From Prochlorococcus marinus str. MIT 9313 (GTDB lineage: Bacteria > Cyanobacteriota > Cyanobacteriia > PCC-6307 > Cyanobiaceae), in NCBI RefSeq assembly GCF_000011485.1, contig NC_005071.1, positions 372,001-436,000 on the forward strand: DNA of 64,000 nucleotides, read 5' to 3'. The notes beneath the pieces are model-generated. The model made no database searches, was not told where the DNA came from, and saw only the letters and a program-made list of their open reading frames with translations. The position numbers and the translations under genes were made by a program. Shown here in pieces: positions 6,170 through 62,406 of the stretch. How positions within the stretch are numbered: the stretch's first letter is position 1; every line of letters begins with the position of its first letter.

Positions 6170-7351
6170 TTAGCGGAAGTGCGCCAGGGTGGCCTCCAGA
6201 CGTTGGAGCAGTTGGCGGATTTCGCTTGGTTTGATGATCAGCGGCGGCACCATGCGCACAACCTTTGGACCTGCTGCTATCACCAGTAGCTTTTCTTCAA
6301 GGGCGGCCTGGGCGACATTTGGTGCTGTGAATGTGCTCTCGTCTTGGAGCACCAATCCTTGCAGTAGCCCCCAGCCTCGTACCCCTTTGAGTTGCCTCGG
6401 GAAACGTTGCACCAGGTCAGTGAGGCCTTCGCGCAGCTGTGCGCCTCGTTGCTGGACCTTTGCGATCAAACCCCGTCGTTCGATCTCCTTGGCAACTGTG
6501 AGAGCTGCCTTGCAAGCAAAGGGATTGCCGCCAAAAGTACTGGCGTGGTCACCTGGTTCGAAAAGATCAGCGTGCTGTTTAACAAGTAACGCTCCGATGG
6601 CATGGCCTCCCCCGAGTCCTTTGGCCAAGGTGAAGGCATCTGGTTCGATCCCAAGCTGCTGATACCCCCACCAGTTGCCACAACGGCCCATCCCGACCTG
6701 AACTTCATCAAAGATCAGCAGGATCTGATGCTGGCTACAGAGTTCTCTAAGGCGCCTGAAGAAGCCTGCTTCGCCTGGATTGACGCCACCCTCACCTTGT
6801 AGTGGTTCGATTAGCACGGCGGCAACAGAGGGCCCCTGAGCTTCGAGGCGATTTAGCTGCTGCTCGAAGGCTTGGAGGTTATTGAACGGGAAAAATTCAA
6901 ATCCCTCAACCATGGGTTCGAAACCTTTGTGGAAGTTGGGCTGACCTGTGGCACTTATCGCAGCAAGTGTGCGGCCGTGGAAACTGGAATTAGCGGTGAG
7001 AATGATTGGCCGATCAATGCCGCGACGGCGATGACCGTGTTTGCGAGCCAGCTTGATGGCGGCTTCGTTGGCTTCTGCACCGGAATTGCAGAAGAACACG
7101 CTGTCTGCACAGCTGTTTTCTACTAACCAATGGGCAAGAGCCTCTTGTTCAGGAATCCGATACAGATTAGAAACATGCTGAAGTTGTTTCAGCTGCTGGC
7201 CAAGAGAGCGACGCAGGGCCCGGTCACTGTGACCGAGGGCGCAGGTCGCGATACCGGCAACCGCGTCAAGGTATTGATGACCATGGTCATCCCATACCCA
7301 GCATCCTTTCCCGCGTAACAGAGTGACGGGAAAACGTTTGTAGGTGCCCAT
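6170..7351 (-). CDS. argD: Acetylornithine aminotransferase
   Basis: PLP-dependent class III aminotransferase of arginine synthesis, converting N-acetylglutamate semialdehyde to N-acetylornithine. Counting from the ATG at 7351 (MGTYKRFPV), the NSGAEANE loop is at 89-96, DEVQVGMGR near 215, and the PLP-binding lysine is K244 in LAKGLGGG. The frame stays open for 28 further codons upstream, but those codons read through the tRNA-Leu gene and must be excluded. The start codon is only eight bases after the tRNA, so argD may be cotranscribed with it and released by tRNA processing. folC follows without a gap. Confidence 0.95.
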   Translation of the reverse strand: MGTYKRFPVTLLRGKGCWVWDDHGHQYLDAVAGIATCALGHSDRALRRSLGQQLKQLQHVSNLYRIPEQEALAHWLVENSCADSVFFCNSGAEANEAAIKLARKHGHRRRGIDRPIILTANSSFHGRTLAAISATGQPNFHKGFEPMVEGFEFFPFNNLQAFEQQLNRLEAQGPSVAAVLIEPLQGEGGVNPGEAGFFRRLRELCSQHQILLIFDEVQVGMGRCGNWWGYQQLGIEPDAFTLAKGLGGGHAIGALLVKQHADLFEPGDHASTFGGNPFACKAALTVAKEIERRGLIAKVQQRGAQLREGLTDLVQRFPRQLKGVRGWGLLQGLVLQDESTFTAPNVAQAALEEKLLVIAAGPKVVRMVPPLIIKPSEIRQLLQRLEATLAHFR

Positions 7352-7359
7352 CACAGCAG

Positions 7360-7441
7360 TGGGAGCGGTGGGACTTGAACCCACATGCCCGAAGGCGCTG
7401 GATTTTGAATCCAGTGCGTCTACCAATTCCGCCACGCTCCC
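7360..7441 (-). tRNA. tRNA-Leu(CAA)
   Basis: An 82-nt class II tRNA on the minus strand. The acceptor stem GGGAGCG pairs with CGCTCCC, the anticodon stem CTGGA/TCCAG encloses TTCAAAA, giving anticodon CAA, and a long variable arm and GGTTCAAGTCC T-loop follow. CCA is not encoded. It lies between murA and argD on the same strand. Confidence 0.95.
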
Positions 7442-7464
7442 TTGGAGGTGATGTTATGCCAGGG

Positions 7465-8769
7465 TCATCCTGAGGGCTGATGCCGAAGGATATGGGCTCC
7501 AGATGCATTCAATTTGGTTTCAATCTCGTCATAACCGCGATCGAGGTGGTTGAGGCCATCAACTTGACTGATGCCGTGTGCGGCAAGGCCTGCTAACACG
7601 AGCGCCGCTGCGGCTCTTAAGTCGTTACCACTAACTGGTGCAGCACTTAGCTGGGGGATGCCTTCGACCACAGCCGTGTTTCCTTGAAGACGAATCGAAG
7701 CGCCCATTCTTTGCAGCTCAGCGACATGTTGCATGCGGTTTTCGTAGATCTTTTCTGTCACCACGCTTGTGCCTTTGGCTGTGGTTAATAGGGCCATAAA
7801 GGGGGCCTGCAAGTCCGTTGGGAAGCCTGGGAAAGGTTGGGTGATGATGTCAACACCATGAAGATCCCCCGGGATAAGAGTGATTCCTTGCTTGTCAATC
7901 TCAAGGGTGCAGCCGCAATCTCTCAGTTTCTGGAGCACGGCATTGAGATGCTCAGGGATGACTGGAGACACTCGAACAATCGAGCGGGTGATTGCCGCTG
8001 CTATCAGGAAGGTCCCTGCTTCAATGCGATCAGGGATTACCGAATAGTTGCAGCCGTGTAAACGTTCAACGCCTTCGATGGTGATGATTGGACCACCAGC
8101 ACCGCTTACACGAGCACCCATGGCATTGAGCATTTTGGCCAGGTCTTGAACCTCAGGCTCCTGGGCAGCGTTTTCGATGGTGCTAGTGCCTTCCGCCAAC
8201 ACAGCTGCCATGAGAATGGTCTCGGTTGCACCGACACTTGGGCAGTCGAGCACGATTGCAGCACCTTTAAGTCGCCGTGACGTTCCTGGCACTGAAGCTG
8301 TGACAACGCCATGCTCAACTTTCACCATGGCACCAAGAGCTTTAAGCCCTCTGATGTGCTCAACAACAGGCCGGGCTCCGATGCGGCAACCACCCGGCAG
8401 GGGGACTTTGGCGTGACCGAGTCGTCCTAGCAGTGGGCCAATGCAGAAAAAGCTAGCTCTAAGGCCATTGACTAGATCGTAGGGAGGTTCGGCGTGATGA
8501 AGGCCATCAGCCTGCAGCCAAACGGTCTCCTGACTCCGTTTTACTCGTACCCCCAAGGAGGCGAGGATGTCTGCCATTCCCTGGATATCTGTGAGCTGGG
8601 GGACATTGTGCAGCTCAAGGGGGCCTTCGCTGAGAAGGGCTGAGGTCATGAGCACGAGGGCAGAATTCTTAGCTCCGCTGACTTTCAGCTCTCTGGAAAG
8701 AGTATGTCCGCCTTGAATCTCCAGATGCGGCTTGAGAATCTCTTGAGATATGGATACCGCTGCGGGCAT
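7465..8769 (-). CDS. murA: UDP-N-acetylglucosamine 1-carboxyvinyltransferase
   Basis: 434 residues. MurA makes the first committed step of peptidoglycan synthesis, transferring enolpyruvate from PEP to UDP-GlcNAc in the cytosol. The substrate-binding Lys-Asn pair is at 34-35 (SGAKNSA), and the catalytic cysteine is C128 in PGGCRIGARP, the residue attacked by fosfomycin. Motifs such as FPTDLQAPFMAL and the DLRAAAALVLAGL segment near the C-terminus are typical. The tRNA-Leu gene follows on the same strand after 23 bases. Confidence 0.96.
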   Translation of the reverse strand: MPAAVSISQEILKPHLEIQGGHTLSRELKVSGAKNSALVLMTSALLSEGPLELHNVPQLTDIQGMADILASLGVRVKRSQETVWLQADGLHHAEPPYDLVNGLRASFFCIGPLLGRLGHAKVPLPGGCRIGARPVVEHIRGLKALGAMVKVEHGVVTASVPGTSRRLKGAAIVLDCPSVGATETILMAAVLAEGTSTIENAAQEPEVQDLAKMLNAMGARVSGAGGPIITIEGVERLHGCNYSVIPDRIEAGTFLIAAAITRSIVRVSPVIPEHLNAVLQKLRDCGCTLEIDKQGITLIPGDLHGVDIITQPFPGFPTDLQAPFMALLTTAKGTSVVTEKIYENRMQHVAELQRMGASIRLQGNTAVVEGIPQLSAAPVSGNDLRAAAALVLAGLAAHGISQVDGLNHLDRGYDEIETKLNASGAHILRHQPSG

Positions 8770-9327: not shown

Positions 9328-10155
9328 TTGATTTCAAGTCGCCGCAATCCTCTGGTGCGGAGATTGAAATTCCTCGCTAGCAGCGAAGGTCGTCAAGAGC
9401 AGGCTTTGTTGCTGCTTGAGGGAACCCACCTGCTTCAGGAAGTGTTGCGAACCACACACCGTCCTAAAGAGATTGTGGCGACCAACTTTTGGCTGGAGCG
9501 TCATGGGGATCTTGTGCAGGCTTTGCCTGCAGAAACCTTGATTCATCAGGTCACCCCAAGTGTTTTGGAGGCTTCGTTGACGACAGTCAGCCCAGATGGT
9601 GTCGCCAGCCTTGTGCCCCTTGACTCTCTTCCGCAGGCTGTTAATCAAGCCAAGTTTGTGTTGGCTTTGGATCGGCTGCAGGATCCTGGCAACCTTGGCA
9701 CCTTGCTGCGAACAGCCTTGGCGGCAGAGGTGGAGGCGGTTTGGCTTGCGTCCGGGGCGGATCCCCTTAGCCCAAAAGTGTTGAGGGCTTCGGCGGGGGC
9801 CATCCTGCAGTTGCCCTATCAGCGCTTCGGGTCATCAGGGCAGGAGGCCGTGGAGCAGTTGGCTGAGCAGCTTGAATGGGCTGCTAGTCACGGTTTACAG
9901 GTCGTGGCCACCATGGTGCCGGGCTCTTCTGCAGCCCATTCTTGTTTGCCTTATTGGCAGCTGGACTGGAGAAAACCGACTGTGTTGGTGCTGGGCAATG
10001 AGGGATCCGGCCTGCATCCGCGTCTGCAGGCGTGTTGTACTGATTGCGTGACCTTGCCGCATAGCGCAGCAGTTGAGTCGCTCAATGTGGCGGCGGTGGC
10101 GGTGCCACTACTGCTTGAGCGGCGACGAGCCACAATGACCTTCTCCACGCAGTAG
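9328..10155 (+). CDS. SpoU/TrmH family RNA 2'-O-methyltransferase
   Basis: 275 residues with a TTG start at 9328; the nearby ATG at 9317 is closed at once by a stop. The N-terminal part (ISSRRNPLVRRLKFL, then LLLEGTHLLQEVL) matches the substrate-binding domain of SpoU enzymes. The C-terminal knotted SAM domain shows LGNEGSGL at 222-229 and VESLNVAAV at 249-257, the family's motifs. It methylates a ribose 2'-OH in tRNA or rRNA; the target nucleotide cannot be assigned. lpdA starts five bases after its stop. Confidence 0.9.
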   Translation: MISSRRNPLVRRLKFLASSEGRQEQALLLLEGTHLLQEVLRTTHRPKEIVATNFWLERHGDLVQALPAETLIHQVTPSVLEASLTTVSPDGVASLVPLDSLPQAVNQAKFVLALDRLQDPGNLGTLLRTALAAEVEAVWLASGADPLSPKVLRASAGAILQLPYQRFGSSGQEAVEQLAEQLEWAASHGLQVVATMVPGSSAAHSCLPYWQLDWRKPTVLVLGNEGSGLHPRLQACCTDCVTLPHSAAVESLNVAAVAVPLLLERRRATMTFSTQ

Positions 10156-10160
10156 TTCGG

Positions 10161-11630
10161 GTGAGCGAAGCCAGTTTCGACTTCGATGTGATCGTGATCG
10201 GTGCGGGTTACGGCGGTTTTGATGCCGCCAAGCATGCCGCTGATGATGGCCTCAAGGTGGCGATTGTGGAATCAGGTGAGATGGGCGGCACTTGCGTGAA
10301 TCGAGGCTGTGTGCCCTCTAAGGCATTGCTTGCTGCTAGTGGAAGGGTGCGTGAGCTGGCTGATGCTGAACACCTATCTGGTTTCGGGATCCATGCTGCA
10401 CCGGTGCGTTTTGAACGCCAGAAGATTGCTGACCATGCCAACCAGTTGGTGGCCACGATTCGTAGCAACCTCACCAAAACGCTGCAGCGGGCTGGTGTCA
10501 CGATCCTGCGTGGCCATGGACGATTGGAGGGAAGCCAGCGAATTGGCTTGAGAGAGAAAAGTGGAGTGGATCGGCTGCTCACTGCCAGGGATGTGATCCT
10601 TGCCACAGGCTCTGATCCATTTGTGCCCCCTGGGATTGAAACCGATGGACGCACGGTTTTTACCAGTGATGAAGCCGTGAATTTGGAATGGCTGCCGCGT
10701 TGGATTGCAATTATCGGCAGTGGTTATATCGGCCTTGAATTTGCCGATGTTTATACGGCTCTCGGCTGTGAAGTCACGATGATTGAGGCGTTGGATCGGG
10801 TCATGCCAACCTTTGACCCCGACATCACCAAGATGGCAGCTCGGCATTTGATTGAAGGACGTGACATCGATGCACGTGCTGGTGTGCTGGCTAGCAAGGT
10901 GATCCCTGGCTGCCCGGTAAGGATCGAACTGGCGGAGATGAAAAGCCGTGAGCTGGTGGATAGCTTGGAGGTGGATGCGGTGCTCGTCGCTACTGGTCGG
11001 GTGCCAAGTAGCAAGGGGCTCAATCTTGAGTCGGTTGGTGTGGAGACCAATCGTGGCTTTGTGCCGATTGACGACAGCATGCGGGTATTGGTCAACGGAA
11101 AGCCGCTGCCTCATCTTTGGGCCGTCGGTGATGTCACTGGCAAGCTGATGTTGGCCCATACAGCCGCAGCACAGGGCACGCTGGCTGTTGACAACATTCA
11201 GGGACACTCCCGCACGATTGATTACCGCAGTATTCCAGCCGCAACCTTCACTCATCCGGAGATCAGTTCAGTGGGGTTGAGTGAAGCTGATGCCAAAGAT
11301 CTTGCCGCCAAGGATGGGTTTGAGTTGGGGAGTGTGCGCAGCTATTTCAAGGCCAATTCCAAAGCACTAGCAGAGCTGGAGAGTGATGGATTGATGAAGT
11401 TGTTGTTCCGCAAAGACAATGGTGAAGTTCTTGGTGCTCATATCTATGGATTGCACGCCGCCGATTTGATCCAGGAGGTAGCCAATGCGGTGGCACGACG
11501 TCAGAGCGTTGCTCAATTGGCCACTGAAGTGCATACCCATCCCACCCTGAGTGAAGTGGTGGAAGTGGCCTATAAACAGGCGGCCAAACAGCTGGCTAAG
11601 GCGGTTGTTGCATCGGCCAGTGCTTCCTAG
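10161..11630 (+). CDS. lpdA: Dihydrolipoamide dehydrogenase (E3)
   Basis: 489 residues, GTG start. A flavoprotein disulfide reductase that reoxidises dihydrolipoamide of pyruvate dehydrogenase, and in other organisms glycine cleavage, producing NADH. The FAD-binding GAGYGG is at 14-19, the redox disulfide C45/C50 in CVNRGC, the NAD-binding GSGYIGLEF in the middle, and the catalytic HPT...E motif has H460 near the C-terminus. The pdhA subunit is encoded in the same window at 23.1-24.2 kb. Tight spacing to the methyltransferase gene suggests cotranscription. Confidence 0.95.
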   Translation: MSEASFDFDVIVIGAGYGGFDAAKHAADDGLKVAIVESGEMGGTCVNRGCVPSKALLAASGRVRELADAEHLSGFGIHAAPVRFERQKIADHANQLVATIRSNLTKTLQRAGVTILRGHGRLEGSQRIGLREKSGVDRLLTARDVILATGSDPFVPPGIETDGRTVFTSDEAVNLEWLPRWIAIIGSGYIGLEFADVYTALGCEVTMIEALDRVMPTFDPDITKMAARHLIEGRDIDARAGVLASKVIPGCPVRIELAEMKSRELVDSLEVDAVLVATGRVPSSKGLNLESVGVETNRGFVPIDDSMRVLVNGKPLPHLWAVGDVTGKLMLAHTAAAQGTLAVDNIQGHSRTIDYRSIPAATFTHPEISSVGLSEADAKDLAAKDGFELGSVRSYFKANSKALAELESDGLMKLLFRKDNGEVLGAHIYGLHAADLIQEVANAVARRQSVAQLATEVHTHPTLSEVVEVAYKQAAKQLAKAVVASASAS

Positions 11631-15530: not shown

Positions 15531-15713
15531 TCAACATGATTCTGGCAGGAGATGCAGCTTTCGACTGTGCTTGGTTGATTTCTGCTGTTTCAGTTGCCTT
15601 TGCTGCTGCTCCAGCTAGTTGACCCTGCCCTGCAGTTGATTGGTGTCTTTCTGGCTGGCCAAGAAAAAATCCTGGACAATCTTGTCGCGATTACGTTCAA
15701 GCTTGAGAGCCAT
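15531..15713 (-). pseudogene. Small coiled-coil gene interrupted by an amber codon
   Basis: ATG at 15713 opens MALKLERNRDKIVQDFFL and reaches a TAG at 15617-15615 after 32 codons. The same frame then continues with LEQQQRQLKQQK for 27 more codons to a TGA at 15531. Replacing TAG by GAG or CAG would make one uninterrupted coiled coil across the stop (GRVN-x-LEQQQRQL). Either a nonsense mutation truncated a 60-residue protein or the 32-residue product is the functional one. Unknown family. Confidence 0.45.
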
Positions 15714-16100
15714 TGATTGGATTGGCTAAGGAGTTTCACCACCGAGGGCCTTGAATATGGCTGCCCATAGGGCAGCAGCTTGTGGTTGCTTTAGGCATCT
15801 AAGGTTTATCCATTCTTGAAGACATAGATATAAAATTGATCTCTTGATGTGACTGAGGACCCGGCAAAAATTGAAGATAGAATGAAGCCTTAATAGTGGT
15901 TGATCTGTGCCATATTCTCCGTGAGTTCAGGTCTGGTTCAGAGTTGTGGTATTTGATTCAGCCTTAGATCCCAATCCTAAGGACGTCGTTATTGGCTTGG
16001 TGAGATTAATTATTAGGGCTGTTAGTGCAGCCACACCAATAACTGCCTCAAGCTTTGCTCTGCAAGCTAGTTTTCAAAACACTATGAGCTGAGGATTTAG
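15714..16100. other. Upstream region of the porin-like gene
   Basis: No gene seen. It should carry the promoter of the outer-membrane protein at 16101. A minus-strand frame open without start codon ends at about 15730 (reading ...AALWAAIFKALGGETP), too weak to call. Confidence 0.3.
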
Positions 16101-26341: not shown

Positions 26342-27835
26342 ATGTTTGAAGAACTTTCAGCCCGCTTTGAAGATGCAGTTAAGGGGCTGAGAGGCCAGGC
26401 AAAGATCAGCGATACCAATGTTGAGGATGCTCTTAAGCAGGTGCGACGTGCCCTTTTAGGGGCTGATGTGAGTCTTGAGGTCGTGCGCGAGTTTGTCGAG
26501 GAGGTGCGGCAGAAGGCAGTTGGTGCGGAAGTGGTGCGAGGTGTGACTCCTGATCAGAAGTTTGTTCAGGTGGTGCATCAGCAGCTGGTGGAGGTGATGG
26601 GTGGTGATAACGCTCCCATGGCTGAGGCTGAAGATTCACCAACAGTGGTGCTGATGGCTGGATTGCAGGGGGCTGGCAAAACCACTGCAACAGCGAAGCT
26701 TGGACTTCACCTCAAAGATCAGGGTCAGCGGCCCCTGATGGTGGCTGCTGATGTCTATCGGCCGGCTGCCATTGATCAGCTCCGCACCCTGGGTGAGCAG
26801 ATCGGAGTGGATGTGTTCAGCCTCGGAGACGATGTCAAACCTGAGGAGATCGCGGCAGCAGGACTTGCCAAGGCTCGTGAGGAAGGTTTTGACACCTTGT
26901 TAGTGGATACGGCAGGTCGGCTGCAGATCGATACAGAGATGATGGAGGAAATGGTGCGAATTCGTTCTGCCGTAGAGCCCGATGAAGTGCTCTTGGTGGT
27001 GGATTCGATGATTGGTCAGGAGGCGGCTGAACTCACTCGGGCCTTCCACGACAAGGTTGGTATCACTGGATCTGTTCTCACCAAGCTGGATGGTGATTCC
27101 CGCGGTGGGGCTGCGCTTTCGATTCGCAAGGTGAGTGGTCAGCCGATCAAGTTCATCGGTACTGGAGAAAAGGTTGAGGCTTTGCAACCTTTTCATCCGG
27201 AACGGATGGCCAGCCGCATCCTCGGTATGGGCGATGTGCTCACCCTGGTGGAGAAAGCTCAGAAGGAGGTGGAGCTTGCTGATGTTGAGAAGATGCAGAA
27301 GAAGCTGCAGGAAGCTTCGTTTGATTTCTCCGATTTCCTGCAACAGATGCGACTGATCAAACGGATGGGTTCTCTCGGTGGTTTGATCAAGATGATGCCG
27401 GGCATGAACAAGCTGGATGACGGCATGCTCAAGCAGGGTGAGCAGCAGCTCAAGCGCATCGAGGCCATGATTGGCTCGATGACTGCTGATGAGCGCAATC
27501 AGCCTGAATTGCTTGCTTCACAGCCTTCTCGTCGTCGTCGTATCGCTGGTGGGAGTGGCCATAGCCCCGCTGACGTGGACAAAGTTTTGGCTGATTTTCA
27601 GAAAATGCGTGGCTTTATGCAGCAGATGAGTAAGGGCGGTGGCATGCCTGGAATGCCTGGAATGCCTGGAATGCCTGGAATGGGTGGTGGGTTGCCCGGT
27701 ATGGGGGGACCTGGTGGTGGCATGTCTGGCATGGGAGGCGCAGGCATGCCAGAGCCAGCTTCAGGTGGTCGCGGTGGTGGTTCCCCCAGGCGTCAGCGAC
27801 CGGTGAAAAAGAAGAAGGGATTTGGAGAGTTGTAA
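26342..27835 (+). CDS. ffh: Signal recognition particle protein Ffh (SRP54)
   Basis: 497 residues. Ffh binds signal sequences of nascent membrane proteins and, with 4.5S RNA and FtsY, brings ribosomes to the membrane. The N domain is followed by the G domain with GLQGAGKTT at about 106-114, DTAGRLQID and TKLDGDSRGG. The methionine-rich M domain follows from about 330 (FLQQMRLIKRMGSLGG). The tail has an expanded GMP-repeat stretch (MPGMPGMPGMPGMGGG) encoded by a 9-bp tandem repeat, then a basic end. rpsP and phoH follow on the same strand. Confidence 0.97.
   Translation: MFEELSARFEDAVKGLRGQAKISDTNVEDALKQVRRALLGADVSLEVVREFVEEVRQKAVGAEVVRGVTPDQKFVQVVHQQLVEVMGGDNAPMAEAEDSPTVVLMAGLQGAGKTTATAKLGLHLKDQGQRPLMVAADVYRPAAIDQLRTLGEQIGVDVFSLGDDVKPEEIAAAGLAKAREEGFDTLLVDTAGRLQIDTEMMEEMVRIRSAVEPDEVLLVVDSMIGQEAAELTRAFHDKVGITGSVLTKLDGDSRGGAALSIRKVSGQPIKFIGTGEKVEALQPFHPERMASRILGMGDVLTLVEKAQKEVELADVEKMQKKLQEASFDFSDFLQQMRLIKRMGSLGGLIKMMPGMNKLDDGMLKQGEQQLKRIEAMIGSMTADERNQPELLASQPSRRRRIAGGSGHSPADVDKVLADFQKMRGFMQQMSKGGGMPGMPGMPGMPGMGGGLPGMGGPGGGMSGMGGAGMPEPASGGRGGGSPRRQRPVKKKKGFGEL
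27644..27679 (+). repeat. Four perfect copies of a 9-bp tandem repeat inside ffh
   Basis: ATGCCTGGA is repeated four times without change, encoding Met-Pro-Gly units in the C-terminal tail of Ffh. Identical copies at DNA level suggest recent slippage expansion; copy number may vary between strains. Confidence 0.9.
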
Positions 27836-30953: not shown

Positions 30954-31808
30954 ATGAACGTACTGATTCCTGGAGCACTATTGCTGATCATGTTCGCGCT
31001 AGGGCTCAACTTGCGCGACAACCACTTTGATTTGATCCGAAACCGCTCAGCCTTGTTGCTGCGCGTTTTGCTGGGCACCTGCGTGCTGGTGCCGTTGGTG
31101 GCGATGATCATTCTCTGGCTTGCGCTCAGCTTTGAGTTATCTCAGCCTGCGAGATTGTCGATTGCTCTGATGGCGGTTTGCCCAAGTGCTCCGCTCACAC
31201 TGCGCAAAGCGGGAAAAGCAGGCGGCAATGCTCAGATGGCTGTCTACTTGCAGATGGCTGCGGCGATTGCGGCGATTCTTTCAATTCCTCTGATGGCTGA
31301 GTTGTTCACGACTGTCTTTAAAGGGCAAGGTTGGGAGATCAGACCTATGCACGTGGCGATGAATGTGGGCCAGGTTCAGATCCTGCCGTTGTTGTTAGGT
31401 CTGTTTCTCCGCCGCTGGTTACCAGCTTGGGCCGAACATGCTGAGCCGTTCTTCAACAAGCTTGCCAATTTGCTGCTGCTGCTGCTCCTGGTGGTGATTG
31501 TTGTTAAGGCCTTTCCCTTACTCATTCCTTTTGCCAGCAAGAACCTGCTGGCGCTGGCATTGATGGCCGTCATGGTGATCGCATCGTTGCTGATCGGTTA
31601 TCTGCTAGCGGGGCCGGACCCCAAAGAGCGAACCACTGTTTCACTGGTGATCTCCATGCGAAATCCAGGCTTGGCACTCTTGTTTGCCCAGATCAATGCT
31701 CCACAGATGCTTGAACTCAAACTATCGATCCTGACCTATTTAGTACTCACAATTATTTTTTCGATTCCTTTCTTGAATTGGCGCAAGCGGTTGGCGATGG
31801 GAACTTGA
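30954..31808 (+). CDS. BASS-family (bile acid:Na+ symporter-like) transporter
   Basis: 284 residues with about nine hydrophobic helices. The BASS/arsenical-permease-like fold is suggested by MFALGLNLR near the start, the CPSAPLTLRKAGKAGGNA segment in the first half and SMRNPGLALLFA in the second half, where the two Na+-binding crossing helices lie. Substrate unknown; cyanobacterial and plastid relatives carry pyruvate or other organic acids. A 12-bp tandem repeat lies after the gene. Confidence 0.75.
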   Translation: MNVLIPGALLLIMFALGLNLRDNHFDLIRNRSALLLRVLLGTCVLVPLVAMIILWLALSFELSQPARLSIALMAVCPSAPLTLRKAGKAGGNAQMAVYLQMAAAIAAILSIPLMAELFTTVFKGQGWEIRPMHVAMNVGQVQILPLLLGLFLRRWLPAWAEHAEPFFNKLANLLLLLLLVVIVVKAFPLLIPFASKNLLALALMAVMVIASLLIGYLLAGPDPKERTTVSLVISMRNPGLALLFAQINAPQMLELKLSILTYLVLTIIFSIPFLNWRKRLAMGT

Positions 31809-31877
31809 GCTGTTTCTTTTGTTTCCACTTTTAACTTCCACTGTTTGCTATCAAGCTGAACTCAACCTGAGTACTAG

Positions 31878-31925
31878 ATCAATAGACAAATCAATAGACA
31901 AATCAATAGACAAATCAATAGACAA
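31878..31925. repeat. Four perfect 12-bp tandem repeats
   Basis: ATCAATAGACAA occurs four times in tandem, followed by a partial fifth copy (ATCAACAGG). It lies between the convergent ends of the BASS transporter and the 173-residue hypothetical. The perfect copies point to recent slippage; no function visible. Confidence 0.9.
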
Positions 31926-31962
31926 ATCAACAGGCCAGTCAATTAGCCATTGCTTAAGCCAT

Positions 31963-32484
31963 TCATGTTTCTGCGATGGCCTCGATTGAGGCTGTAATGG
32001 CTTGCTTCTGCTCGTCGTCATAACCCCAGCGATTGAGAAAAGCGACATCTTCTCCACGGGTGTGCTCAACAGCCTCAAGCAGTTGTTCCAGTCTTGTTTT
32101 GACGGACTTAGGTTCGAGCAGACGCAGCAGTTCAGTGCAGCGAGATGTCACTTTCTTCGATCCAGCCTGCTGTGCCATATCGCCTGTGCGTTGATGGTGC
32201 ATGGCCATCGCCGTGCTCATCGCTAGGTTGCGGACGGTCAGGTCAACGACACCTTCTCCAGCAGCCCTTAATTGCATCACCAGGGCTTCGGGTAGGCGAT
32301 CCATCAGTGGGGAATCCCCTGCCAGGCTCACTACAAAGAATCCACGGGCGCCATCACGACTGGCTACCAATTCCGCGACCCGGTCGGCGAGTACTTCATC
32401 GCTGAGTTCGCCCTCTTCCCATAGCCTCAGCCACTGAGCGGTGATTTCAATCGCTTGTTCAAAGCTTGGCGCTGGGGTGCTCAT
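31963..32484 (-). CDS. Conserved hypothetical protein, 173 aa
   Basis: A soluble, mostly helical protein without signal peptide (MSTPAPSFEQAIEITAQWL; ELSDEVLADRVAELVAS; ARGFFVVSLAGDSPLMDRLP). I recognise it only as a hypothetical of the type conserved in cyanobacteria and give no function. It is divergent from era, whose start codon is about 50 bases away, so the two may share a regulatory region. Confidence 0.75.
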   Translation of the reverse strand: MSTPAPSFEQAIEITAQWLRLWEEGELSDEVLADRVAELVASRDGARGFFVVSLAGDSPLMDRLPEALVMQLRAAGEGVVDLTVRNLAMSTAMAMHHQRTGDMAQQAGSKKVTSRCTELLRLLEPKSVKTRLEQLLEAVEHTRGEDVAFLNRWGYDDEQKQAITASIEAIAET

Positions 32485-57942: not shown

Positions 57943-58566
57943 TTGCCATTGGCTGCCTCTTCTCCTGAGTTGCTTACTTCTGCCCAGCAGGAGCTTTATG
58001 ACTGGTTGGCTGATTACATCAGCAGCCATCACCACAGCCCTTCGATTCGACAGATGATGCAGGCCATGGGTCTGCGCTCACCAGCGCCGGTGCAGAGCCG
58101 GCTTAGACATTTGCAGCAGAAGGGATGGATTACTTGGCAGGAAGGGCAGGCGCGTACCTTGCAGCTACTTGGTGGGTTGGTGTCCGGTATTCCCGTTTTG
58201 GGTGCAGTTGCCGCTGGTGGTTTGGTGGAGACGTTTGATGATGTTCAGGAGCGGTTAGATCTTGCACCAGTTTTGGAGACCCGTGGACTGTTTGCGCTCA
58301 CCGTGAATGGTGATTCGATGGTGGATGCCTACATTGCAGATGGCGATGTGGTTCTGATGGAGCCAGTGCCTGAGCCTTCGCGGCTGCGAGATGGAACGGT
58401 GGTGAGTGCACTTGTGCCCGGAAGTGGCACCACGCTGAAGCACTTTCACCGCAACGGCGCTTCGGTGCGGCTTGAGGCTGCTAATACCGCCTATGAGCCG
58501 ATTGAGCTACCAGCCGATCAGGTGCAGGTTCAGGGCAAGCTCGTGGCTGTTTGGCGTCAGGTTTGA
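57943..58566 (+). CDS. lexA: LexA repressor
   Basis: 207 residues with a TTG start (57949 TTG is an alternative). The N-terminal winged helix (ELYDWLADYISSHHHSPSIRQMMQAMGL) binds DNA. The cleavage site is A91-G92 in AVAAGG. The S24-type self-cleaving domain has S125 in VNGDSM and K166 in TLKHF. All catalytic residues are intact, which is not so in some cyanobacteria where LexA lost cleavage. A probable operator lies just upstream. Confidence 0.94.
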   Translation: MPLAASSPELLTSAQQELYDWLADYISSHHHSPSIRQMMQAMGLRSPAPVQSRLRHLQQKGWITWQEGQARTLQLLGGLVSGIPVLGAVAAGGLVETFDDVQERLDLAPVLETRGLFALTVNGDSMVDAYIADGDVVLMEPVPEPSRLRDGTVVSALVPGSGTTLKHFHRNGASVRLEAANTAYEPIELPADQVQVQGKLVAVWRQV

Positions 58567-58627
58567 GGCCTTGCCGTTGTAAGCTGTGTTTTGACGGCGG
58601 TACGAGCCCAGTGTTACCGGCGTTTAT

Positions 58628-58700
58628 GGGGCCATAGCTCAGCTGGTAGAGCACCTGCATGGCATGCAGGGGGTCAGGAGTTCGAGTCTCCTTGGCTCCA
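58628..58700 (+). tRNA. tRNA-Ala(GGC)
   Basis: 73-nt tRNA with acceptor stem GGGGCCA/TGGCTCC, D-arm AGCTCAGCTGGTAGAGC, anticodon arm CCTGC-ATGGCAT-GCAGG giving GGC, and T-loop GTTCGAGTC. CCA is not encoded. Its 3' end adjoins an integrase fragment, so it is a likely attachment site. Confidence 0.95.
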
Positions 58701-58733
58701 TTCTTAAAAATACTGTCCTAGACAGGGTTTTGG

Positions 58734-58755
58734 GCGGCAGAAAGGCCGCTTTTTT
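58734..58755 (+). terminator. Intrinsic terminator of tRNA-Ala
   Basis: GCGGC, a 6-base loop, GCCGC and six T residues. A second hairpin, CTGTC-CTA-GACAG at 58712-58724, precedes it. Together they end the tRNA transcript. Confidence 0.85.
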
Positions 58756-58762
58756 AGTGCCC

Positions 58763-58846
58763 TTCTGCGCATCGTGTCCTGCCTGGGTAGTCACATGTCT
58801 GCCCATTTCTGCGCATGATTCTGCGCATAGGAATTGTTCTGCGCAC
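58763..58846 (+). repeat. Four direct repeats of TTCTGCGCAT between tRNA-Ala and the integrase fragment
   Basis: Copies at 58763-58772, 58807-58816, 58819-58828 and 58837-58846 (last base C in the fourth). The final copy touches the integrase ATG at 58847. Same-orientation short repeats beside an integrase gene and tRNA are the pattern of integrase arm-type binding sites; this function is inference. Confidence 0.7.
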
Positions 58847-59248
58847 ATGCCTCAGCAGAAGTGGTTCGCCCGCCTTCGTGGGCAGATAAAAGACAGGTGT
58901 GGAATGGGTTGGGGCATCGCTGATCGCAACGGTGACACCCAGCTCACCCGACGCATCAATGATGGAAAGCAGCACCAGAACCCCAGACAATCGGTGCAGT
59001 TGGGGGTGCCATGGAACCCGGCCTGCAGCGGGGAAATTTTTCTGAAGGTCTGCCAGCACAAGCAGCTGGTGGACGAGCGCCACTGCTCGCTGGCTGAGGC
59101 CAAAAAGAAACTAGATGCCAAGGACAGCGCCACCCCCACTATCACACGCTCGTTGGAGGAGGAGGACAGCGGCTGGGAGGCCGTCATCGATCCCCGTTGC
59201 CGGAACGCCCGCGTCACATCCCGAAGTCGCTTTATCGCAAGCAGCTGA
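58847..59248 (+). pseudogene. Tyrosine integrase, N-terminal fragment
   Basis: 133 residues from ATG 58847 directly after the fourth repeat. KWFARLRGQIKDRCGMGWGI, ADRNGDTQLTRR, QSVQLGVPWNPACSGEIF and DERHCSLAEAKKKL read like the arm-binding and core-binding head of marine cyanobacterial/cyanophage tyrosine recombinases, and the helix SGWEAVID at about 112 begins the core-binding domain. Past this the frame passes into another protein's sequence in the wrong frame; the catalytic domain with the R-H-R-Y residues is gone. A deletion joined it to the primase piece that begins near 59197. Confidence 0.65.
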
Positions 59249-59529
59249 CGCGGACGCTGCAGGACATCGCCGATGCGTTGAAGCTCATCCCGCCACGGGT
59301 GCCGGGACACGGCAATTACCCGGTGGATCGGAACATGGCCTGGGGCCTGAAGGCTGCCTGCCGCGACGCTGGGTACGGTACGGATGTGGCTCGGAAACTA
59401 CTCGAAGCCCACAGCCCTAACGGTTGGGACCCCGACCAGATCCTCCGCTTTGGAGGTGATCAGATCAGTGCTGGGACGTTCTGGTGGCAAGCCCAGCAAC
59501 ACGGCTACCGGAGGCCCGCCGATGACTGA
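59197..59529 (+). pseudogene. Primase-associated PriCT-like fragment
   Basis: 110 residues with a TTG at the head, not a trusted start, because the head lies at the deletion junction with the integrase. The sequence YRKQLTRTLQDIADALKLIP, NMAWGLKAACRDAGYG and GGDQISAGTFWWQAQQHGYR is the pattern of PriCT-2-type modules found between primase and helicase domains of integrative elements and phages. It overlaps the next frame by eight bases. GC and codon use are higher than in the flanking genes, a sign of foreign origin. Confidence 0.5.
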
Positions 59530-60148
59530 TCTGCAGTCGGTGGTAGACCATCACTCCACCATCCCGGACGAGGCGATCAGGGATGCCGCCAAGAGCATCC
59601 GGGTCGCTCAGGGCCGCCAGCGATTCAGCTTCGACAACCTCCTGCCGTCCGATCTAGCGAGGGCCGTGGAGATGGTGACGGAGGTGCTGCCTGCCGATGC
59701 GCTGACCTCCGTGTTTACGCTGCTCTGCGGTTACAGCGGCCTGCTCAAGCTCGGCACCAAGGTGTCGCCGGATGGTCGCTATTGGGTCCCCGCCAACCTG
59801 TACGTCGGGCTAGTGGGGCCAAGCGGTTTGACCAAGAGTCCAATCCAGAAGGCCCTCATCTCCGATCCATCCCGGCAGCTTCAGCAGGAAGAGAAGGCTC
59901 GGTATGACCTGCTGCTGAAGGTATGGGAGGACTCCGAACCACAAGACAGGGAGAAACATCCTGCCCGCCGGTGCCCACTGCATCAGAAGGAGTTCTCCCC
60001 GGAGGCGCTCGGGATGTGGCTGCAGTTCTACGAGCAGGCTGGCCTTGGTGTTCTGCTGACCCGCGCTGAATTGAGCGGGATGCTGCGGTCGCTGGAGGCT
60101 GACACCAGGCGCGGCAGGGGTACCGCTGAGGCTCAATTTTTAGAGTAG
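59522..60148 (+). pseudogene. DUF3987-like primase/helicase, truncated by an amber codon
   Basis: 208 residues from ATG 59522. GYSGLLKLGTKVSPDGRYWV followed by NLYVGLVGPSGLTKSPIQKA is the DUF3987 core with a degenerate P-loop (GPSGLTKS). It ends at TAG 60146-60148 after TAEAQFLE; the same frame continues YDGDDCTSLRRAV, as family members do (E-x-YDG), and is then lost. The full domain would be about twice as long. So the replication protein of the element is dead. Confidence 0.6.
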
Positions 60149-60541
60149 TACGACGGTGATGACTGCACTTCTCTCCGCCGGGCAGTGGTGAACCAGCGAC
60201 CTACAAATAGTGAGAAAAAGCGCTTCATTGGTTTGGAAGCGGTGGAGGGTCTCCCCTCTCGATGAACCAACCATCGGCCGAATCAACGATTCACCTGGCG
60301 ACCTGCCTCAACGAGGGCTGTGATGTTGGTCACAGGGGCGTCACCACTTGGACTGACAACGCTGCCACCCACCTCACTTCTGCATGGTGTTCAAGGTGCC
60401 GGATCACCCCGCGGCTCTCAACTTGATCGGAATGTCCTTTCTCGCTAAATAAGTCGTTGTCATTAATCTGTCGACATTTAGGGAACTCTATATCGTGTTA
60501 TCTAGAGCAGTTGCTAATAAGTAAAGCAATCAGTTCTGGTT
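60149..60541. other. Element end and gap
   Basis: The first 60 bases are the tail of the DUF3987 frame. The rest shows no supported gene. I do not see a second copy of the tRNA-Ala 3' end, so the far attachment site is not identified. Confidence 0.35.
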
Positions 60542-60787
60542 TTACTCACTGTCCTCCAGATTTTCTAATTCAATGGAGAAGTGATATAGGGCTATGCCAA
60601 GAAATGCACCAAAGACAACCTGGCCATCGGCATTAGGGGCGATTTCTGTCGCAACGATCAGGATAAAACTAGTTAATGTCAAGGCCCGTAGAGTGCGTCG
60701 CTTTATTGCTCTATTCCTCAGCCTTTTGTGGAGGAGGGAGTTTGTCTCACTCATCCACTTTTCAAGCTGTTCTCTGGATTTAGTCAC
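60542..60787 (-). CDS. Small membrane protein, 81 aa
   Basis: A charged helical start of about 30 residues (MTKSREQLEKWMSETNSLLHKRL) is followed by two hydrophobic segments (LTSFILIVATEIAP; QVVFGAFLGIALYHFSIEL) separated by the turn EIAPNADGQ. The last motif recurs in the 51-residue protein just upstream. Function unknown. It is the second gene of a two-gene minus-strand unit. Confidence 0.6.
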   Translation of the reverse strand: MTKSREQLEKWMSETNSLLHKRLRNRAIKRRTLRALTLTSFILIVATEIAPNADGQVVFGAFLGIALYHFSIELENLEDSE

Positions 60788-60820
60788 TACTAAGTCGTCA
60801 GCAGCTGTTAATTTCTCATC

Positions 60821-60976
60821 TTACTGTGCTTTGTCTAAGCTTTTCAGTGTGTGCACTAACAGTCCGATCAATAGTCCAGAAAACGTTCCTACAAGAATTT
60901 GTCCATCGTTGGGAGCAACTTCTAGCATCATGATAAATACAAAAAATGTCCATATTAATAGCCTCATGTTGACCAT
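60821..60976 (-). CDS. Small membrane protein, 51 aa, related to its neighbour
   Basis: ATG 60976 (or 60967). Two short hydrophobic segments, LLIWTFFVFIMMLEVAP and ILVGTFSGLLIGLLVHTL, flank EVAPNDGQ, the same hairpin turn as in the 81-residue protein 33 bases downstream (EIAPNADGQ). The two are evidently a tandem duplication, with the longer one carrying an extra N-terminal helix. Too short for usual gene callers. Function unknown. Confidence 0.5.
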   Translation of the reverse strand: MVNMRLLIWTFFVFIMMLEVAPNDGQILVGTFSGLLIGLLVHTLKSLDKAQ

Positions 60977-61039
60977 TGTCACTGTTTAGCCCTTGGCTAA
61001 TGATGGCGCGTTGTCTCTTTAAGAATAAGATTTAATCTT

Positions 61040-61618
61040 TCAATCTGCTCTGCTCTGTTGTGATGCTTTTTGCTCTGCACTGGAAAGCTTCTCAATGATG
61101 CCAGCAGTTTCTAACTCCCCTGTGAAGCCAAATGAGGCAGAGTCAACAAGACGATCGGGGAACAAAACCCCGTCTAAGTGGTCACATTCATGTTGGATAA
61201 CTCTAGCTGGGAAGCCCTCAAGGCAATGCTCAACCTCAAAACCATCTTCATTCAGCGCCCTGTAGTGAATCCGACTCCAGCGCGATACCTTGCCCCGCAG
61301 GCCTGGCACACTCAAGCACCCCTCCCAACCATCCTCTAGATCAGAGCCGATTGGTGTTAAGACAGGATTAATCAGAAGTGTTTGTGGAATCGATGGGGCC
61401 TCGGGATAGCGAGGATTAGGGCCTCCTCCACCAAACAGCACCACTCTTAAAGGGACACCAATTTGGGGTGCGGCGAGCCCTGCTCCTTGATGGGCCTTCA
61501 CCGTGTCTTGTAAATCCTTGATGAGTGAAATGATCAGCTCATCAGAGGCATCATCGACGACATTGGACACTTTCCTCAGTTGAGGATTGCCCATACGCAG
61601 GATTTCTTTCACAGCCAT
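61040..61618 (-). CDS. def: Peptide deformylase
   Basis: 192 residues from ATG 61618; GGAGG lies nine bases upstream, which chooses this start over ATG 61624 (only three bases away from it) and over the longer frame to 61771. Removes formyl from nascent proteins. The three family motifs are present: GAGLAAPQIG, EGCLSVPG and HECDHLDGVLFPDRL, the last with the metal ligands. The sequence of the third motif fits type 1B deformylase. Confidence 0.95.
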   Translation of the reverse strand: MAVKEILRMGNPQLRKVSNVVDDASDELIISLIKDLQDTVKAHQGAGLAAPQIGVPLRVVLFGGGGPNPRYPEAPSIPQTLLINPVLTPIGSDLEDGWEGCLSVPGLRGKVSRWSRIHYRALNEDGFEVEHCLEGFPARVIQHECDHLDGVLFPDRLVDSASFGFTGELETAGIIEKLSSAEQKASQQSRAD

Positions 61619-61746
61619 GATCATTAACCTCCCTTTCTCTTTTCTGTAGTTTTCGCCAACACAACAAAACCAGCCACAAGGATGAGCAAGATTCTGTAAA
61701 TGGACAAGTGAGTTATCAGGCTCATTGTTTTGGCTTTTGTTAATGT

Positions 61747-62406
61747 TCAGCTGCTTAGCAGTCTCTTGCAAAAATTACTTGAGTGAGTCACTGCTGCGGT
61801 CCAGTTTTCGGTTTCAGTGAGTCCAGAGTTTCGGGTGGGTTTGAAGCTGTGATCTCCGGCAGGCATCCATTGCAAAGAGACCATTGGCGACAAAGTGTAG
61901 GTTTCTACCTCGTCTTGTCGCCCCATCCCATCGCGTTCGCCTTGCAAAATCAAGGTTGGCGTCTTTTGCACGGCAAGATGTTCAGTTCTCAACTGCTGAG
62001 GTTTCCCCAAGGGATGAAAGGGGTAACCCAGGCAGATGCAGCCAAGTACGTTCATTTTGGCTGAGAGTTCATCTGCCAGAAGACTCGCGACTCTGCCTCC
62101 CATCGACTTACCGCCAATGATTACAGGTCGAAGCGCAGCTTCGCTCTCGACCTGCTCGAGGAAGACTTGCTTCAATTTCGGCATTCGATCAGGGGGAGAG
62201 CGTTTGCCACTAATGCGTTGTTTAGCCATGTATGAGAATTCAAAGCGCACCACTCGCCAACCGACTTCAGCTAAGCCACTGGCCATCGCTGTCATGAAAG
62301 GGCTATCCATTGCTGCACCAGCCCCATGGGCTAAGAGCAGGGTGGCAGGTGCAGCGCTAGAACCATTCACCAAGCGTGGAGTGGGATCCATCGATAACTT
62401 ATTCAT
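61747..62406 (-). CDS. Alpha/beta hydrolase (TEX30/KANL3-like)
   Basis: 219 residues. The oxyanion region LLAHGAGAAMDSPFM is near the start, the nucleophile Ser lies in GGKSMGGRVAS, an acid in QGERDGMG, and the His in GDHSFKPTRNSG. This is the pattern of the small alpha/beta hydrolase subfamily of COG3571 type. Substrate unknown. It is 128 bases upstream of def on the same strand. Confidence 0.88.
   Translation of the reverse strand: MNKLSMDPTPRLVNGSSAAPATLLLAHGAGAAMDSPFMTAMASGLAEVGWRVVRFEFSYMAKQRISGKRSPPDRMPKLKQVFLEQVESEAALRPVIIGGKSMGGRVASLLADELSAKMNVLGCICLGYPFHPLGKPQQLRTEHLAVQKTPTLILQGERDGMGRQDEVETYTLSPMVSLQWMPAGDHSFKPTRNSGLTETENWTAAVTHSSNFCKRLLSS

What the first reader, a model, noticed from the sequence alone, without database searches (positions are those of the whole stretch)
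58628..60148. Relic of an integrative element at tRNA-Ala(GGC) with putative integrase arm sites
Directly after the tRNA come four same-direction TTCTGCGCA(T/C) repeats, then an integrase N-terminus, then a PriCT-like and DUF3987-like replication piece, all broken. The order tRNA, arm repeats, integrase, primase/helicase matches integrative elements, satellites and the tRNA-targeting elements reported from Prochlorococcus. Internal deletion and an amber stop show decay. The element's payload and far attachment site are not visible in the window, so this may be a heavily deleted copy.
Basis: partly seen in the sequence, partly recalled or inferred. Interest (0 to 1): 0.68.

Follow-up and report, generated by a model that had tools for sequence, protein, structure and literature searches.

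The report
Decayed mobile element at tRNA-Ala
Just after an alanine tRNA gene in this marine cyanobacterial genome lie the wrecked first 1.5 kb of a mobile DNA element whose complete, 9-kb version still sits at the same tRNA in a marine Synechococcus; it is an ordinary fossil, but its relatives reveal the short DNA code that this family of integrases very probably uses to grip the element's ends.

Summary
At tRNA-Ala(GGC) (58627-58701) lie four direct TTCTGCGCA repeats, an integrase N-terminus (58847-59189, residues 1-114), a primase C-terminus (59192-59529) and a DUF3987 helicase N-terminus (59522-60172, amber stop at 60146). Synechococcus sp. UW105 carries the intact element at the same tRNA (L018): a 45-bp perfect repeat of the tRNA 3' end about 9 kb downstream, a complete tyrosine recombinase, primase, DUF3987 helicase and cargo. 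The window copy lost 2.47 kb internally (int catalytic domain to primase) and everything right of DUF3987 residue ~217. No second att copy exists in the genome. The element is 90-96% identical to UW105's while neighbouring core genes are only 74-79%, so it crossed genera. Related genomes hold independently inactivated copies. The repeats are very probably integrase arm sites: TCTGCGCA-N4-TCTGCGCA occurs in only 12 of 251 relatives, mostly beside a related integrase, and at both ends of several elements, including ones that target tRNA-Arg instead of tRNA-Ala. This is a dead member of a known kind (tycheposon-like island). Formal tycheposon membership could not be tested, because the defining paper is not held.

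The parts
58627..58701 (+). tRNA-Ala(GGC), the integration target, with its 3' end restored by the element
   Evidence: ARAGORN, Rfam 65.3 bits. T-arm GGAG..CTCC as in the element-bearing genomes G002 and G003; congeners G001 and G004, where no element was found, have GCGG..CCGC
58659..58703 (+). attL core: 45 bp identical to the far attachment site (attR) of the intact UW105 element
   Evidence: 100% over 45 bp to L018 15776-15820
58763..58771 (+). putative integrase arm-type site 1 (TTCTGCGCA)
   Evidence: conserved in UW105 and G206
58807..58827 (+). putative arm-type site pair (TTCTGCGCA twice, 12 bp apart)
   Evidence: same pair at both ends of UW105 and G206 elements; 18 places in 12 of 251 genomes, mostly beside a related integrase or at an element's far end
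58837..58845 (+). putative arm-type site 4, one base before the integrase ATG
58847..59189 (+). integrase N-terminal fragment (residues 1-114 of 439); ORF runs on out of register to 59248
   Evidence: 93.6% DNA identity to UW105 int, 94% protein; catalytic residues R259, K280, R370, H396, Y405 all in the missing part
59190..59191 (.). deletion junction: 2 bp in place of 2465 bp present in UW105 (L018 7344-9808)
59192..59529 (+). primase C-terminal fragment (from about residue 245 of 356), PriCT-2-like
   Evidence: 96.1% DNA identity to UW105; PHROG helicase/primase hits for the intact protein; weak PriCT_2 in a relative
59522..60172 (+). DUF3987 helicase N-terminal fragment with amber TAG at 60146-60148
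   Evidence: PF13148 4.5e-8; 90% to UW105; only copy in the genome
60173..60412 (.). unassigned tail: 108-bp leader repeat (60226-60333) and a 57-bp stretch like the UW105 cargo end; probably scrambled element or island remains
60413..61040 (.). ordinary chromosome resumes (shared with G001 contig 51, 88.5%, leading into peptide deformylase)

Best explanation
This is the dead left end of an integrative element of marine picocyanobacteria. In its intact form, seen in UW105, a tyrosine recombinase joined an element attachment site to the 3' half of tRNA-Ala(GGC), restoring the tRNA and leaving a 45-bp copy at the far end; paired TCTGCGCA arm sites at both ends held the recombinase for integration and excision, and a primase plus a DUF3987 helicase copied the excised DNA. 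In the window lineage a deletion removed the integrase catalytic domain through most of the primase, an amber stop broke the helicase, and a second event removed the rest with the far attachment site, so the remnant can neither move nor replicate. Shown: homology, gene order, att repeat in relatives, deletion, loss of attR, transfer between genera. Inferred: the biochemical roles of the arm sites, primase and helicase.
For: Intact homologue at the same tRNA with a perfect 45-bp att repeat. Intact integrase hits phrog_1 and PF00589, its profile finds archaeal XerA in PDB, and the catalytic set is invariant across 16 relatives. Element 90-96% identical to UW105 versus argF 74% and LexA-type regulator 79.5%. 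Arm pair at both ends of UW105 and G206, and of a G161 element at tRNA-Arg. Precise deletion junction. Amber stop. No second att in the genome. Independent int-to-replication deletions in G002 and G206 with other breakpoints. T-arm of the tRNA matches the element-bearing, not the apparently element-free, congeners.
Against: No direct HMM hit on the fragment itself. The right end and the 240 bp at 60173-60412 cannot be aligned to any intact element, so how the right side was lost is unknown. No binding or excision experiment exists for any member in this data. G002 and G003 are draft genomes, so their lesions could partly be assembly errors.
Confidence: 0.93

Rival explanations
1. The remnant belongs to a degenerate temperate phage (prophage) rather than to a phage-free integrative element.
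For: Integrase, primase and helicase at a tRNA also open many prophages; the intact proteins hit PHROG integrase and helicase families.
Against: The 9-kb intact UW105 element shows no capsid, portal, tail or large-terminase gene among the ORFs examined. Integrase and DUF3987 find no match in 50,697 phage records and no confirmed relative in the viral contigs.
Confidence: 0.04
2. The repeats are operators or replication iterons for the integrase or replication genes, not recombinase arm sites.
For: They sit immediately upstream of the int start; one further pair lies inside the UW105 primase gene in opposite orientation. Repressor sites would also be conserved.
Against: The same pair recurs about 75-160 bp inside the far attachment site in UW105, G206 and G002, and at both ends of the G161 element. 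Two-arm placement with orientation matching int is what arm sites predict.
Confidence: 0.1
3. Truncated copies such as this one are functional non-autonomous elements, moved in trans by an intact integrase that reads the same arm sites.
For: Truncated copies keep the arm sites; G206 also keeps attR and cargo.
Against: The window copy has no attR, so it cannot be excised by this route. Copies were found through their int N-terminus, which biases the sample towards this kind of deletion.
Confidence: 0.05

Closest known systems
Tycheposons (Hackl et al. 2023, Cell; described at second hand in PMC10872708, PMC10187409, PMC11389934)
   Same: Picocyanobacterial host, tRNA target, tyrosine recombinase next to the tRNA, variable cargo
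   Different: This copy is dead and about 1.5 kb. The defining paper and its integrase clade were not available, so clade membership is untested.
Complete element at tRNA-Ala(GGC) of Synechococcus sp. UW105 (L018)
   Same: Same target, arm sites, integrase, primase and DUF3987 at 90-96% DNA identity
   Different: UW105 keeps a complete integrase, two small ORFs, Nif11-type peptide and porin-like cargo, and attR
Picocyanobacterial integrase family at tRNA-Phe/tRNA-Cys (PMC10187409)
   Same: Tyrosine recombinase islands beside tRNAs in Prochlorococcus and Synechococcus
   Different: Different target tRNAs, reported near a small serine recombinase; described there as distinct from tycheposon integrases
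Phage satellites (P4, PICI, VEIME)
   Same: Int plus replication module beside a tRNA; small size
   Different: No packaging gene could be shown: the one small candidate near attR in UW105 has no sequence or fold match

Membership tests
tRNA-targeting integrative element (tyrosine recombinase type) | Sits at the 3' end of a tRNA gene | tested here: met
tRNA-targeting integrative element (tyrosine recombinase type) | Far end marked by a direct repeat of the tRNA 3' end | tested here: not met
   Absent in this copy; present in UW105, G206 and G192 relatives. Loss fits decay, so the claim is a remnant of such an element, not a functional one.
tRNA-targeting integrative element (tyrosine recombinase type) | Complete tyrosine recombinase with R-K-(H)-R-H-Y | tested here: not met
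   Only residues 1-114 remain; the intact relative has the catalytic set
Tycheposon | Integrase belongs to the tycheposon clade | not testable with these tools
   Reference sequences and paper not held
Tycheposon | tRNA border, tyrosine recombinase, 4-200 kb cargo-carrying island (as summarised in PMC10872708) | tested here: inconclusive
   Met by UW105 (about 9 kb) and by G206 with metal-uptake cargo; the window copy is too decayed
Phage satellite (PICI/P4-like) | Packaging or capsid-remodelling genes | tested here: inconclusive
   Candidate TerS-like ORF in UW105: no family, phage or fold match, model pLDDT 64; the G206 candidate is not alignable with it

The most novel reading that the evidence does not exclude
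The arm-site code TCTGCGCA-N4-TCTGCGCA is a shared interchange standard: integrases that have diverged to about 30% identity and switched tRNA targets (Ala, Arg, Val) keep the same arm sites, so copies that have lost their integrase could be moved in trans by, or exchange arms with, elements at other tRNAs.
Probability: 0.12. Interest if true: 0.55.

Novelty: new member of a known kind. Interest (0 to 1): 0.32.

Why it matters
The fossil itself is ordinary. Its value is as a pointer: it led to an intact close relative, to evidence that the same tRNA gene has been invaded repeatedly and across genera, to several separately inactivated copies, and to a conserved arm-site motif that can be used as a DNA signature to find such elements and to test integrase binding directly.

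Tried and rejected
Direct HMM search of the integrase fragment (no hit) was replaced by homology to UW105. Relatives in IMG/VR and in phage records: none confirmed. Structure prediction of the integrase N-terminus failed (pLDDT 42), so a named arm-binding fold is not claimed. A terminase-small-subunit identity for the small ORF near UW105 attR was considered and not supported. A link of 60340-60396 to a small element gene is seen in DNA only; the protein comparison was not significant. The idea that T-arm type GGAG..CTCC always marks element carriers was dropped as a family-wide rule, because many genomes with a single copy of the site also have it; the contrast holds only within the window's genus. 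The whole genome was not available as a file. One search was a script error, redone.

Full report
SETTING. The window is bases 372001-436000 of a single-contig genome of 2,410,873 bp. From memory, that size is the size of Prochlorococcus marinus MIT 9313. The order is argF, a LexA-type regulator (57943-58566), tRNA-Ala(GGC) (58627-58701), the feature, then a peptide deformylase gene on the minus strand (61040-61771) (gene names by recognition of the translations, not by a family search).

WHAT IS THERE. Behind the tRNA lie four same-strand TTCTGCGCA copies at 58763, 58807, 58819 and 58837; only one more exists in the 64 kb. No dinucleotide shuffle of the 145-bp leader gave a 9-mer four times in 20,000 trials, although two other places in the window also reach four. 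An ORF from 58847 encodes 114 residues that match a complete 439-residue integrase of Synechococcus sp. UW105 at 94%. From 59192 the DNA matches the UW105 primase gene from about residue 245 (96.1%), and from 59522 the DUF3987 gene (90%), up to about 60166-60172. A TAG at 60146 replaces TCC. From 60413 the sequence is chromosome shared with congener G001 at 88.5% and leads into the deformylase gene.

THE INTACT RELATIVE. In UW105 (L018) the same tRNA (6781-6855) is followed by the same repeats, the integrase (7001-8320), two small ORFs, a primase (to 10146), DUF3987 (10139-11566), a porin-like ORF, Nif11-type peptides, other small ORFs, a second TCTGCGCA pair at 15690/15702, and a 45-bp perfect copy of the tRNA 3' end at 15776-15820. 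The element is therefore about 9 kb. The integrase hits phrog_1 (6.7e-11) and PF00589 weakly. A profile of 16 relatives finds the archaeal XerC-like/XerA structure 4a8e, and R259, K280, R370, H396 and Y405 are invariant. All of these lie in the part missing from the window.

HOW IT BROKE. Compared with UW105, the window lacks 2465 bp between 59189 and 59192, with 2 bp in their place and no clear microhomology. Everything after DUF3987 residue ~217 is gone, including cargo and attR; the genome holds no second att core at up to 3 mismatches. The intervening 240 bp (60173-60412) include a 108-bp stretch 92% identical to the leader of a repeat-rich gene elsewhere in the genome, and 57 bp resembling the UW105 cargo end; I leave this stretch unassigned.

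HISTORY. The fragments are 90-96% identical to UW105, while argF is 74% and the LexA-type gene 79.5%, so the element moved between genera. Congener G002 has a LexA-type gene 95% identical to the window's but an element of only about 75%, so insertions into this tRNA were independent. Congeners G001 and G004 show no element at this tRNA by these searches, and their tRNA T-arm is GCGG..CCGC; the window, G002 and G003 have GGAG..CTCC. The probable far end of the G002 element (contig C21) carries a mixed core, GGAG on the left and CCGC on the right, which fits replacement of the tRNA 3' part by the element. Across the wider family both T-arm types occur in genomes with a single copy of the site, so the contrast is informative only within the genus.

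PARALLEL DECAY. G002 joins int residue ~204 to primase residue ~108. G206 joins int residue 174 to DUF3987 (about residue 382) across a 12-bp shared word, while keeping metal-uptake-type cargo and attR, with a second element in tandem behind it. G003 has a frameshift in int but is a draft. Copies were found through int, so this sample favours deletions that keep the int N-terminus.

ARM SITES. TCTGCGCA-N4-TCTGCGCA occurs at 18 places in 12 of 251 family genomes, with no match for the reversed control pattern. Ten of the 18 lie 20-370 bp before an integrase of this family, in the same orientation, with identities down to 30%. Others mark far ends, in UW105, G206, G002 and G161. One lies inside the UW105 primase gene. 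The target tRNAs include Ala(GGC), Arg(TCT) in G161 and G113, and Val(TAC) in G100 and G009; for the two Val cases no far repeat was seen in the stretch fetched. This is the placement expected of arm-type sites, which are read by the integrase N-terminal domain while the core site sets the target; that role is inferred from the lambda Int paradigm, not shown here.

FILING. It works like, and descends from, a tRNA-targeting tyrosine-recombinase island of picocyanobacteria. Second-hand descriptions of tycheposons fit the intact relatives (PMC10872708), but the defining paper is not held, so formal membership stays open. Phage-satellite status is unproven: no packaging gene could be confirmed.

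Noticed in passing
L103 2134-2838 (genome position about 1,079,633-1,080,337) and L104: A second integrase fragment without catalytic domain (about 230 aa), not at a tRNA, open and 97.5% identical in DNA between the window genome and G002 (10 synonymous, 7 non-synonymous codon changes); apparently inherited vertically.
   Followed up: partly
60226-60333; genome 1,013,188-1,013,295; G001 contig 23: A leader-like stretch of about 108 bp recurs upstream of a repeat-rich secreted-type gene in the same genome (92%) and near peptide genes in G001 (76%).
   Followed up: partly
60542-60787 (-) and 60821-60982 (-): Two small neighbouring membrane-type ORFs sharing a similar segment; the region is conserved in G001; only weak PHROG hits.
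   Followed up: no
L053 1031-16888: Tandem array at tRNA-Ala(GGC) in G206: a crippled element with CobW-type GTPase and zinc/manganese-type binding-protein genes, then a second element with its own intact integrase; three att copies.
   Followed up: partly
L031, L032, L046 and G131: In some relatives the integrase lies at the far attachment site or in opposite orientation to the tRNA, so two layouts of the element exist.
   Followed up: no
window about 27535-27790 and 31780-32030: Two other places where a 9-mer recurs four times within 145 bp.
   Followed up: no
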